A stretch of 64,000 nucleotides of DNA, from assembly GCA_023974075.1 (NCBI GenBank), contig JAMFTG010000217.1:124001-188000 (forward strand), given 5' to 3'. Below are positions 1,343 to 10,300 of this stretch, one piece after another; position 1 is the stretch's first letter; each line of letters opens with the position of its first letter. The DNA is from Chaenocephalus aceratus. Its lineage: Eukaryota > Chordata > Actinopteri > Perciformes > Channichthyidae. The position numbers and the translations under genes were made by a program. The notes under the pieces were generated by a model. The model had not been told where the DNA came from and did not search any database. It saw only the letters and a program-made list of their open reading frames with translations.

Positions 1343-4300
1343 CTGTGGGACAAACGACAATACATCTCTTTAGTTTTCTTTGTCTTGTCTTCATTAGGAT
1401 CCCAATGGAGCGCCGCGTCCTAAAACCAGGAAGTAAACTCCTTCCGGTTCCTTCGACAAAAACCCAATGCAATTTCTCCGTAGGATTTTGGAAAATAGCT
1501 GGAACTAATGTCTGTGGTTGAAACACATTGAAGAGACGGATCACGTTTTGTTCAGCCGGATAATCTCCACATGTCTACCCTACTTTTATCATTTTCGAAT
1601 CATAAATCTAGTCGCAAGAAGCAAAATGCTAACGTTATGCTATAAAGGAACTACAGCCGGGTCGCTGCTTCAACGTCACGCCGACTTAAGATCCATATTC
1701 AAACATACAGATTCAAAATGGTACGAGTTGAAGTGTTTGTTTGAACACTTTGCAGGAGGCAGGGACTTGCTTTCAAGCAGAACAGAAACTAACTTAGAGG
1801 AGTGTTTACGTGTTCGGCGTAATGACGTACAACGGCCTCGACAACTTCTGTAGTCCAATTCAGCCACTTGGTAAATGGCTTAGCCCCACCATGAAAAATG
1901 ATGTTAAAGTTAGCAAAATAAAGTCCGCCAACTCACGGAGTAAATTGCACAGACAGCAGTTAGTAAGATTGATTTCAGCAGCCACGGTTTTGAAATACCG
2001 AAGACTAGAAACTGTTTTGAAAACTTTTGTCAGGTAGGGATCGTCTTCTCAATAGAACATCTTTGATAATGTCTTCTGGCCAATCAGAATCGAGATAACG
2101 GCGTGGTGTTGTTGCAGGAAGTCCCGACGGAGAATACTTTTGCCGTAGTACATCTCTATATACATCGATACAACATTACGTGTCGATAGAAATCAATGTG
2201 TGGGCTGTCTTTCATTTTTGACACACAGAATTCTTTTATAATAAACATAGATACTGTATGTTAAATGGATATATCCGCCTTCTTTCATTTATCTTTCCAT
2301 TCCCACAACAATATACATAAAGAAATGGCATATGTTGGACATTTATCGAGCTCAGAAAAGTTATCGAGTCCATTTTTATTTATCGTACGATAAGTCAATT
2401 TATCGATTATCGCGACAGGCCTACGTGTTAGTAAGTAAAATGTTGTATATCATACATGGATTGCCAACTCATTTGTACATGTCTTATTCCCTCATTGTTA
2501 ATATCTGTATTTGTGGATGTCATGTTTGTGTTGAAACTCAATAAAGATATATTTAAAATATGTTTCGTTACCTGGAAGTGCCCGGATCCCTGCACGGAGA
2601 AGATGAGGATGATGAGGTTGTTCTCGAGGAAGGCCTTGGCGAGTTTGCCCTCGTTGCTCGGGGTGGTGGACCAGATCCCTTTCTGCTGAGAGATCTCGAT
2701 GTTCCTCAGACTGCTGCTCTTCATGATGAAGTGCCGCACCGAGGGGAAGGCCGGCTGAGAGGACGGGGGCTTTGAGATCTGCTCAGAACCACGGGAGCAA
2801 AACTAGGGTTAGAACCGGACAAATCAGCACTTTGATTTAAAGGTCCCCGATTTTACTGTTTCTCATCAATATATTACAGGTCTCAGATATATACAGAACA
2901 TGTCTCTGATTGGCTCCAAACACCAAACAGATCATTGCAGCATTACCCATAATCCCCTCTGTTTCAGCCCTGTTTCCAAAGTGCTGTTTTTATAAAAATG
3001 GATCAGGACAGAAAGAGAGAGAATATTTGTTCCTGAAACTTTCAGAGTCTCTTTCCACAGAGGGGACACATGGTGATGTAGAAGAGGGGACACATGTTGA
3101 TGTAGAAGAGACATGAAGAAGAGGGGACACATGTTGATGTAGAAGAGACATGGAGAAGAGGGGACACATGTTGATGTAAAAGAGACATGGAGAAGAGGGG
3201 ACACGTGTTGATGTAGAAGAGACATGGAGAAGAGGGGACACATGTTGATGTAGAAGAGACATGAAGAAGAGGGGACACATGTTGATGAAGAAGAGACATG
3301 AAGAAGAGGGGACACATGTTGATGTAGAAGAGACATGAAGAAGAGGGGACACATGTTGATGTAGAAGAGACATGAAGAAGAGGGGACACATGTTGATGAA
3401 GAAGAGACATGAAGAAGAGGGGACACATGTTGATGTAGAAGAGACGTGAAGAAGAGGGGACACAGGTTGATGTAGAAGAGACATGAAGAAGAGGGGACAC
3501 ATGTTGATGTAGAAGAGACATGAAGAAGAGGGGACACATGTTGATGTAGAAGAGACATGAAGAAGAGGGGACACATGTTGATGAAGAAGAGACATGGAGA
3601 AGAGGGGACACATGTTGATGTAAAAGAGACATGGAGAAGAGGGGACACATGTTGATGTAAAAGAGACATGGAGAAGAGGGGACACGTGTTGATGTAGAAG
3701 AGACATGGAGAAGAGGGGACACATGTTGATGTAGAAGAGACATGAAGAAGAGGGGACACATGTTGATGAAGAAGAGACATGAAGAAGAGGGGACACATGT
3801 TGATGTAGAAGAGACGTGAAGAAGAGGGGACACAGGTTGATGTAGAAGAGACATGAAGAAGAGGGGACACATGTTGATGTAGAAGAGACATGAAGAAGAG
3901 GGGACACATGTTGATGTAGAAGAGACATGAAGAAGAGGGGACACATGTTGATGTTGAAGAGACATGAAGAAGAGGGGACACATGTTGATGTAGAAGAGAC
4001 ATGGAGAAGAGGGGACACATGTTGATGTAGAAGAGACATGAAGAAGAGGGGACACATGTTGATGTAGAGGACACATGAAGAAGAGGGGACACATGTTGAT
4101 GTAGAAGAGACATGAAGAAGAGGGGGACACATGTTGATGAAGAAGAGACATGAAGAAGAGGGGACACATGTTGATGAAGAAGAGACATGAAGAAGAGGGG
4201 ACACATGTTGATGTAGAAGAGACATGAAGAAGAGGGGACACATGTTGATGTAGAAGAGACATGGAGAAGAGGGGACACATGTTGATGTAGAAGAGACATG

Positions 4301-7300: not shown

Positions 7301-10300
7301 TAAATTCTGCTGTGATAAAACGCCATCCTGTTCTAAACCACATCAAGGATTATTTCTGAAACAATATGGAGCTCAAATGCTTTTTCTCTTGCGGGTTTAT
7401 CACAAGTAGGGCTGTACCCGAATATTCGATTATTTGTTCGTTGGCCAACTATTCGGGTTTCAATTTCATTATTCGGATATTTTTTTTTTCTTCAAAATGT
7501 ATTTTTTTTTTCCTAAATGTATGCTATCAATAAAGGCGATTGCCATATTCTTAGACTATATTTATACTTTTGAATTGCACTGTTAAAATGCGGAAATATA
7601 TACAATCTCAGCCTGTGCTCCTGACATCGCGTTCACTCACAGTCACGAATGCTAACGTCCCACTTCACCTCGTTTCACACACCTGAACACAAAATGCAAA
7701 AGACTCCAGCTGTGTGGGACCATTTTAAATTGGACGACGATAATTAGAAGGCAGTGTGCCAAATATGCGACAAGAAAATGGACGGTGGCACAACTCTGAA
7801 AAGTCACCGGATGCTGTAAGTAGTAGCCTAGCCTAGCCTAGCTTAGCTGTTGTCAAGTTGCCATGATGAAGATGCTTTATCCGCCGTTTAAACAGTAACG
7901 TTAGACATGATAAAATCGTGCTCTTACTTTGCGTGGAAAATCGTTGCAAGCAAGCAACCGAATTGTTTTTTTACATTAGCTTTTCAATTTTATCCGAATA
8001 GTGAAAATAATAGGAGCAATGTGGGAACATCTGGGACTAAGGCAATTATTGGCATACAGTTCGTTCATTTATTTTTCGTTCTTCATTTATTTAAATACTG
8101 TTTACTGTATCGGTAACAAGTATTACACTGTTAGGCCTACTGTTACAGCTATGTTATTAAAAGTATTGTTGTTATAACAGAAATATGTGTTTTGTATCTT
8201 CAGGTTGTAAAACGTTATAGACGGAATTTGGAACCAGATTTGGTCCCCGGGCGCTGCGCTGTGCGGCTGGGTTAAATGCAGAGGACACATTTTGTTTTTA
8301 ATGTATGTGAGTACTGAGACAATACATATAAATCGTAATGCTCTTTCTGCGCTTCTGCTTAACAGCATGTTGTCAGGTGTCTCGGAGCGTGTTATGAAAA
8401 AAAAAATAAAAAAAAATCTCTCCGCACCGAATATTCGCTGCTGATTACTACCGAATATCCGGAGCCCGAAAAATGGTATTCGGGACAGCCTTAATCACAA
8501 GGTGAGTTCTTTTTTTATTTCCTGCTTTTTAAAAACACGTGTGCTCTCCAGTACAGGTTAGCTCCGAGACGAGATTACGTCCAAAACACGTCGGGCATTG
8601 TTTCTGATGGCAACTTTCTGTGGGTCCGCCACCAATGATTCCGGGCTGACGTCAGCTCGGATGGAATCTGTATCCGCTCGTTGTACACCCGTTTTTAAAA
8701 GATTTGGGTAAGATAAGATAAAATGGACTTTTATTAATCCCCCGTGGGGAAATTGTTTCTCTGCATTCGACCCATCCTAGTGTTAGGAGCAGTGGGCTGC
8801 CATTTTGAACAGCGCCCGGGGAGCAGTGTAGGGAACGGTGCCTTGCTCAGGGACACCTCGGTAGCACTTGGTCTTGCCGGGACTTGAACTGGTGACCTTC
8901 CAGTTGCCAAGCCAAGTCCCTATCGACTTCGCCACCACGGAGGAAAAGAGAGAGGGTTTTATTTTCTGACGCTGCGTGAGTTCCCCGACGCACCGGGACA
9001 CATATTGATGTATAAAAGACATCACAAAGTGCATTTTGCATGATAGGTCCCCTTTAAGTTATAAGTTAGCAAAATCAATCAAATGTAGGTAAAGGATGCT
9101 TGATACTTGAATGTGCTTTAAGAAAAATAAAAAGCCTACATCCCAGCTCTCATTTAATTTGTTCGCAGCTCATTCCTTAAAACAGAAGCCTCAGATTGAT
9201 TATCATAAGAGGAAATAGGAAGGGTCTATTTCAAGTTTGTTAGGTAAATAAGTCTGGGCTATGTTAGAAAATGTTTCCAACTTGAATTGACTGAATTTAT
9301 TTGAAAAGTGGGCTTATTAACACATGAATATGTACATGTTTGCACACCTCTGATCTATTACGTTATGATGTTGTAACTTCCTGTGAAACCCAAGCTCCTT
9401 AGAGGAAGAAAAGAGAGAACAGGACGTACCGAAACCAGGGTCCGGATGATCGCCTCGTCTTGCTGAGTCCAGGGCTTCGAAGGACATCGGATCCTCTTGA
9501 TGAACAAGTTCTGCCACTTCTGCCGCAGTTCAAACACTGCGCCTGCAGCCTGATATAACATGCACAACATGTCAGTAAGAAAATCAATAAATATTTACAA
9601 GTCAGGGAGGAAACGGAGAGAAATAAGAGAACATTTTTGAAACTCTAGCACAACAATTTCCTTCGGGATAAATGAAGTCTTATCTTAACATTGATTTGGA
9701 TGATCTAAACTGAGAGGTAACTATTTCCAATATGCAAGGGAAATGCTGTATCCTGTATATATATATATAAATATATATATGGCAAAGACAGAAAGTATAC
9801 TGAAAAATCAAGTACACACTAGTTAGCCAACTAACAGTTTCAAGTTTTTAATTGTCACAATAATTTTCTTAATTTTCTCTTATTTGGGGTCTCAAGCCAA
9901 ACGTTTTGTAACCAGACATAGAAGATATGTTTTCGTAGGGCTGTGCAATTAATCGTATTTAAATCTCGATTGGAGGTATACTGGTTCTTGTAGGTAATCA
10001 TACATCCTGTCATGTACAAAATACTGAGTTTTTTCTCAAAATGTTGGCTTTTTTTCTGAAAATCAAAAAATCCTGACTTTTTCTCAAAATGTAAAAATCC
10101 TGACTTTTTCTCAAAATGTAAAAATCCTGACTTTTTCTCAAAATCCGGACTTTTTCTCAAAATCTAAAAATTCGGACTTTTTCTCAAAATTCTGACTTTT
10201 TCTCAAAACCTCAAAATTCTGACTTTTTCTCAAAATCTAAAAATTCGGACTTTTTCTCAAAATTCTGACTTTTTCTCAAAATCTAAAAATTCGGACTTTT

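What the first reader, a model, noticed from the sequence alone, without database searches (positions are those of the whole stretch)
2837..9057. A MITE family that carries a 37-bp minisatellite, with single-copy relatives of the unit still present
Array A lies inside a TTAA-flanked MITE next to its right terminus. MITE copy E ends with one unit-like stretch (GACACATATTGATGTATAAA at 8,998) followed by ATTTTGCATGATAGGTCC. Array A ends with a true unit followed by ATTTTGCATAATAGGTGACC. Copy G (37,288-37,345) also has one unit-like stretch. So the 37-bp unit looks like an amplified version of sequence beside the right terminus of this MITE. The sequence shows the alignment; the direction (single copy first, then expansion) is inference.
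Basis: partly seen in the sequence, partly recalled or inferred. Interest (0 to 1): 0.75.

Follow-up and report, generated by a model that had tools for sequence, protein, structure and literature searches.

The report
Mobile element carrying an expanded minisatellite
A short non-coding transposon in this animal genome has one 37-letter stretch near its right end that was multiplied into long tandem arrays which appear to have spread with the transposon, a process already known from frogs but here visible step by step, with single-copy forms still in place.

Summary
Array A (62 pieces plus a terminal unit, 3061-5293) lies inside a TTAA-ended element (2837-5318) and abuts its right terminus. 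The window has two more arrays (B, C), each with MITE sequence on the left only. A fourth, D, 7 kb beyond the window, is complete at both ends.

Of 26 right ends fetched from the same genome, six carry one intact unit between the array's own flanks. Five of the six hold the older letters seen in distant relatives (GTATA where arrays read GTAGA). All six end AAGTGG; in arrays that T was seen only in the last unit (10 of 22 arrays). Fourteen of 15 arrays read from the left share one junction, CACAG|AGGGGACAC. Two locus pairs with 98-99% identical flanks differ in unit number (16/19; 47/at least 61).

Best reading: a non-autonomous Kolobok-type MITE whose subterminal 37-bp segment was duplicated, expanded as a VNTR and carried by transposition. 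This is the Xstir/Xmix kind known from Xenopus. An extra is clustering in the last fifth of chromosomes (66 of 76 right ends; control repeat 6 of 25). Genome-wide counts of 0-, 1- and many-unit copies could not be made.

The parts
2837..5318 (+). Complete array-bearing MITE (copy A) with TTAA at both ends
2841..2856 (+). Left terminal region (AGGTCCCCGATTTTAC)
2841..3060 (+). MITE left part and interior up to the array junction CACAG|AGGGG
3061..5293 (+). Array A: 62 scored pieces plus terminal unit; 37-bp unit with 24-, 19/18- and 36-40-bp variants and block duplications
5294..5318 (+). Right terminus ATTTTGCATAATAGGTGACC-TTTAA
15780..15955 (+). MITE interior left of array B
15956..17057 (+). 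Array B (31 scored pieces plus a partial one), no right MITE end
20362..20521 (+). MITE left part before array C
20522..21447 (+). Array C (24 scored pieces plus a partial one), no right MITE end
59274..60318 (+). MITE copy H without array: left end, interior, nested inserted element (about 59505-60195), right end; unit deleted
7056..9057 (+). Copy E, distant relative with one unit-like stretch (8995-9032); interior holds other repeats
37242..37349 (+). Copy G, right-end fragment of the E type with one unit-like stretch
26736..26820 (+). Decayed fragment with a TTAAAGGCCACCTATCA end and a unit-like stretch

Best explanation
A non-autonomous TTAA transposon (Kolobok-type MITE) had a single 37-bp stretch just inside its right terminus. 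In one lineage this stretch had become GGGACACATGTTGATGTAGAAGAGACATGAAGAAG and was duplicated, with breakpoints CACAG|AGGGG on the left and GAAGAAG|TGGATTTT on the right. The array then grew and shrank by slippage or unequal exchange (VNTR behaviour). The MITE, moved in trans by a Kolobok transposase, carried arrays to many sites. Shown: the anatomy, single-unit relatives with older states, shared junctions, block duplications inside arrays and length differences at two locus pairs. Inferred: the initial event and its exact breakpoints, a single origin, the transposase, and movement of the element while it held more than one unit.
For: Right ends: 20 fetched, 15 arrays, 3 single-unit with MITE interior directly upstream (L039, L043, L050), 1 partial, 1 with non-MITE upstream. 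Six further right ends picked away from the high-coordinate chromosome ends: 3 single-unit (L080-L082), 2 arrays, 1 contracted. All six intact single-unit copies end AAGTGG. Among 284 scored units of 34 arrays that T occurs in 7, one per array; in the sequences these are the last units, and no inner junction AAGTGGGG occurs in any of the rows checked. Five of the six have GTATA letters where arrays read GTAGA; so do E, G, L015 and L017. Left junction CACAG|AGGGGACAC in 14 of 15 arrays among 20 left ends, 12 independent loci, and in A and D. Unit variant ATGAAG to ATGGAG in 20 of 34 arrays (69 of 284 units). Same-flank pairs: 16/19 units and 47/at least 61 units, flanks 497/503 and 496/504 identical. 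Block duplications in the unit strings of A and B. E's 16-bp terminus matches the two Kolobok Tr2 termini of X. tropicalis at 14 of 16 bases and 10 other termini of that table at 4-9 of 16 (PMC6004289 Table 5).
Against: Tree of 72-bp flanks: no starred branch of 18, best tree needs 4 label changes; one clade for arrays neither shown nor rejected (p-AU 0.236). L043 is single-unit with array-type letters and could be a contracted array. The terminal T is missing in 12 of 22 arrays whose right end was read (11 A, 1 C). A's right terminus matches Tr2 at 11 of 16 and the common left form at 9 of 16, and the A type reads AGGTC, not the AGGRR of T2-MITEs. Not all copies keep TTAA: L073/L074 have TGTGT before the left end, L076 has TTAC after the right end, copy H has CTGA at the left. 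No transposase was sought. The same-flank pairs may be haplotypes, recent duplicates or assembly errors. Breakpoint microhomology is only about 2 bp (AG).
Confidence: 0.8

Rival explanations
1. Single-unit MITEs spread first and arrays then expanded independently in many copies, because the sequence around the unit is prone to duplication at that point.
For: L043 has array-type letters with a single unit. Arrays occur in copies with and without the GGAC letters in the flank. The best flank tree does not group arrays as one clade.
Against: The left junction is the same in 14 of 15 arrays, and the unit variant ATGGAG is shared by 20 of 34 arrays. The junction has little microhomology to direct it.
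Confidence: 0.25
2. The MITE captured a pre-existing 37-bp minisatellite (as proposed for miDNA4 in Xenopus, PMC12628747), and single-unit copies are contracted arrays.
For: Loss of units does occur (L079, L066, copy H). L043 could be a contracted array.
Against: Distant relatives E, G, L015 and L017 have one homologous unit at the same place. Five of six single-unit copies carry the older letters, not the array letters.
Confidence: 0.05
3. The arrays spread mainly as segmental duplications or gene conversion among chromosome ends, not by transposition.
For: Strong clustering in distal chromosome parts. Paired hits 4.4 kb apart repeat about 76 kb away on C15. Two same-flank pairs.
Against: A and D are bounded by TTAA, and the two loci have upstream flanks unlike each other. 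Arrays also occur away from the high-coordinate chromosome ends (L077, L078). For most sampled copies the outer flank was not read.
Confidence: 0.15

Closest known systems
Xmix MITE (T2-A1) with Xstir tandem repeats, Xenopus (Hikosaka & Kawahara 2004; seen here only through passages of PMC6004289, PMC9659126 and PMC12628747, original not read)
   Same: TTAA target, AG terminus, MITE ascribed to Kolobok; internal segment amplified; MITE, array and composite structures coexist
   Different: Xstir's sequence was not compared; A-type terminus AGGTC rather than AGGRR; here single-unit forms give letter-by-letter polarity and fixed junctions; distal chromosome clustering
miDNA4, Tc1/mariner MITE with satellite in Xenopus (Scalvenzi & Pollet 2014; seen through passages of PMC12628747 and PMC9659126)
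   Same: One to many monomers inside a MITE
   Different: Other superfamily; capture of a ready-made repeat was proposed there, while here the unit is the MITE's own sequence
BrickBuilt, Porphyromonas gingivalis MITE with 23-nt minisatellite (PMC4596501, passages)
   Same: MITE with 1 to about 23 repeat units
   Different: Bacterial; target duplications vary and are not TTAA in the passage seen
Minisatellites founded by short flanking direct repeats (Haber & Louis 1998, quoted in a passage of PMC6947457)
   Same: Duplication then expansion by slippage or unequal exchange
   Different: That model uses 5-10 bp flanking repeats; here the break has only about 2 bp of shared letters

Membership tests
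Kolobok superfamily | TTAA target site duplication | tested here: met
   TTAA at both ends of copies A and D. Of 20 fetched left ends 12 begin TTAA and 3 on the other strand end TTTAA, 5 were cut inside or beyond the site; the query itself held TTAA, so this is biased. Lost on one side in L073/L074, L076 and H
Kolobok superfamily | RR (AG) terminal letters, as given in PMC6004289 | tested here: met
   Termini start AG in A, D and E's right end
Kolobok superfamily | Terminal sequence like a known Kolobok | tested here: inconclusive
   E 14/16 to X. tropicalis Tr2; A right 11/16, common left form 9/16
Kolobok superfamily | Moved by a Kolobok transposase in the genome | not tested
   no search for one was made; the genome search was mostly unavailable
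T2-MITE | Terminal AGGRR motif | tested here: not met
   A and D read AGGTC (left and right); only E's right end reads AGGGG. So the A type is not filed as a T2-MITE
piggyBac MITE | TTAA target with CCYT-type terminus (recalled) | tested here: not met
   Termini are AGG
Tandem repeats riding on a MITE (Xstir kind) | Unit derived from the element's own internal sequence | tested here: met
Tandem repeats riding on a MITE (Xstir kind) | Array between MITE ends at several independent sites | tested here: met
   Both ends read at four loci: A, D, L073/L074 (decayed right end), L076; elsewhere only one end was read
VNTR minisatellite | Length differs between copies of one locus | tested here: inconclusive
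   Two same-flank contig pairs differ; whether they are alleles is unknown

The most novel reading that the evidence does not exclude
The array-bearing MITE is seeding a family of fast-changing minisatellites specifically into the distal parts of chromosomes, so a transposon rather than local mutation builds the minisatellite-rich landscape near chromosome ends in this genome; older single-unit copies are more often found inside the chromosomes.
Probability: 0.3. Interest if true: 0.6.

Novelty: new member of a known kind. Interest (0 to 1): 0.42.

Why it matters
Births of minisatellites are seldom seen with ancestor, intermediate and product in one genome (my own judgement). Here the pre-expansion unit, the junctions, the arrays and length differences at single loci can be read. 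The distal clustering also offers a testable cause for minisatellite enrichment near chromosome ends. The principle itself, tandem repeats riding on a TTAA MITE, has been in print since 2004 (Hikosaka & Kawahara, seen as cited).

Tried and rejected
Capture of a foreign repeat was set aside because the unit is homologous to single stretches in distant relatives. piggyBac was set aside on the termini, and T2-MITE membership of the A type on AGGTC. An early idea that a 10-bp direct repeat GAAGAAGAGG flanked the ancestral unit (note, from array B's left edge) was dropped: the single-unit copies have CACAGAGGGG there, and B's left edge looks like a deletion into the array. Two exact scans of viral contigs found nothing. 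A flank tree to decide one or many origins was unresolved (L034, with a partly deleted unit, was labelled single there, and L079 was left unlabelled). Genome-wide pattern counts of single-unit against multi-unit right ends were asked for many times and never answered.

Literature: search listings; passages seen from PMC6004289, PMC9659126, PMC6947457, PMC7599744, PMC4596501, PMC12628747; no paper read whole. None of these listings or passages described this element; that is a limited search, not proof of absence.
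Full report
What is there. Array A runs from 3061 to 5293: 62 pieces plus a terminal unit; 49 of the 62 pieces are exactly 37 bp. It sits in an element that starts TTAA-AGGTCCCC at 2837 and ends ATTTTGCATAATAGGTGACC-TTTAA at 5318. Arrays B (31 pieces) and C (24 pieces) have the same unit. B's left flank is MITE interior and C's is the MITE left part; neither has a right MITE end.

Just outside the window (L031, contig C217) lies array D, complete at both ends. Its interior reads on to ...CTCTTTCCACAG, then 28 units, then ATTTTGCATAATAGGTGACCTTTAA.

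The single-copy form. Copies E and G in the window, and L015 and L017 from a 200-kb sample (20 stretches of 10 kb at round coordinates), each have one unit-like stretch at the same place. Alignment scores were 15 to 22, against a best of 4 to 11 in 5000 shuffles each. No array was found in that 200-kb sample. E and G are distant relatives: A's left end does not find theirs.

Closer relatives came from the genome search. The right terminus (32 letters, up to 2 mismatches) occurs 2184 times in the 1.06-Gb genome, reversed control 0 (100 places listed, all with 0 mismatches). I fetched the first 20 listed. Fifteen have two or more units, three have one unit directly after the MITE interior (L039, L043, L050), one has a partly deleted unit (L034) and one has a single unit after non-MITE sequence (L033). 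Six more, picked because they lie away from the high-coordinate chromosome ends, gave three single-unit copies (L080-L082), two arrays and one contracted copy. The list holds only exact matches, so these proportions do not apply to all 2184.

Polarity. All six intact single-unit copies end in AAGTGG before ATTTTGC. In arrays the inner units read AAGAGG. The T appears in 7 of 284 scored units, one per array; in the sequences it is the last unit, and no inner AAGTGGGG occurs in the rows checked. Of 22 arrays whose right end was read (A, D, 17 right-end fetches, L073, L074, L076), 10 have T, 11 A and 1 C in the last unit; L073 and L074 share their flanks and count as one locus. Where arrays read GTAGAAGAGAC, the single-unit copies L039, L050, L080, L081 and L082 read GTATA-type letters, as do E, G, L015 and L017. 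Only L043 has the array letters. So the older state is single-unit, and the array letters are derived.

Junctions. Of the first 20 non-window left ends, read inward for 620 bp, 15 lead into an array. In 14 the junction reads CACAG|AGGGGACAC; in one (L059) a deletion has moved it. Five have no array within reach: L066 has lost the unit, L056 has a partial unit followed by other sequence, and L058, L068 and L069 are interrupted before the junction. Two pairs among the 14 share their outer flanks, so 12 loci are independent.

Dynamics. Inside A the strings of unit types repeat in blocks (dgacaacefaa, then dgacefaa); in B as well. Pieces of 24 and 27 bp look like deletions between repeated AGAAGAG letters (read). 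Contigs C686 and C186 share 497 of 503 flank columns and 440 of 440 of the MITE part read, but have 16 and 19 units (one search's simpler count gave 15 and 18). C1497 and C1315 share 496 of 504 and 224 of 224, with at least 61 units (the stretch ends inside the array) against 47. The variant ATGAAG to ATGGAG is shared by 20 of 34 arrays. In one search only units beginning GGGACAC with at most 4 differences and rows with at least two such units were scored, and both members of each pair were counted.

One or many origins. Shared junctions and unit variants favour one origin. The 72-bp flank tree (24 rows, no starred branch) needs four changes of label, and a single clade of arrays is not rejected (p-AU 0.236). 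I therefore leave this open, leaning to one origin.

Kind of transposon. The TTAA target, the AG termini and the 14-of-16 match of E's end to the Kolobok Tr2 ends of X. tropicalis point to the Kolobok superfamily. A's own right end matches at 11 of 16 and the common left form at 9 of 16, and the A type reads AGGTC, not AGGRR. It is therefore not filed as a T2-MITE. No transposase was looked for. Some copies have lost TTAA on one side.

Place in the genome. Of 76 listed right ends that I placed (24 of 100 rows dropped: contigs C10, C11, C14, C18, C20, C21), 66 lie in the last 20% by coordinate and 46 in the last 10%. For an unrelated repeat (query window 8700-9057, matching about 8709-8938; 25 of 40 hits usable) it is 6 and 2 (Fisher p 1e-8 for the last 20%). 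Of 20 usable left ends out of 40 hits, 19 lie in the last 20%. In my small right-end sample arrays were commoner in the distal set (13 of 16, the three on C2 left out) than in the inner set (2 of 7; p 0.026). That inner set was hand-picked, so this is only a lead. Other reasons for distal clustering (retention, recombination, assembly) were not tested.

Comparison with what is known. Passages in PMC6004289, PMC9659126 and PMC12628747 describe Xmix, a Kolobok-type MITE of Xenopus whose amplified internal segment gives the Xstir repeats. That is the same kind of thing, so I rate this a new member of a known kind. What I did not meet in those passages are the letter-level ancestor series, the fixed junctions, the same-locus length differences and the distal clustering; the original Xstir papers were not read.

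Noticed in passing
window, about 8709-8938: Interspersed repeat nested in copy E: the 39 other hits scored are 96-98% identical (of 5047 candidates) and spread along chromosomes.
   Followed up: partly
window 11329-12471; L031:6122-6431: A second 37-bp minisatellite with an unrelated unit (AGAAGTAGAAAGTACAGGTATTTGAGTTCAACATGTA) recurs just outside the window.
   Followed up: no
window 42718-43638 and 60507-60906; L029:6469-7364: A 33-bp minisatellite (TACAAGATCTGAGTACTTCTACTTTTACTCAAG) occurs in both orientations in the region.
   Followed up: no
window 59505-60195: Element with inverted-repeat ends nested in MITE copy H (by eye).
   Followed up: no
window 40529-41616, 42077-42383, 49026-51204, 52353-56322: Further large tandem arrays (42, 36, 27 bp and AC-rich): the window is rich in minisatellites.
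   Followed up: no
L032:2655-3068 and L032:6492-6905: 126-bp period repeats, apparently in opposite orientation, about 3.4 kb apart.
   Followed up: no
G000 C15:33136702-33217331: Pair of MITE right ends 4.4 kb apart repeated about 76 kb away: likely segmental duplication.
   Followed up: no
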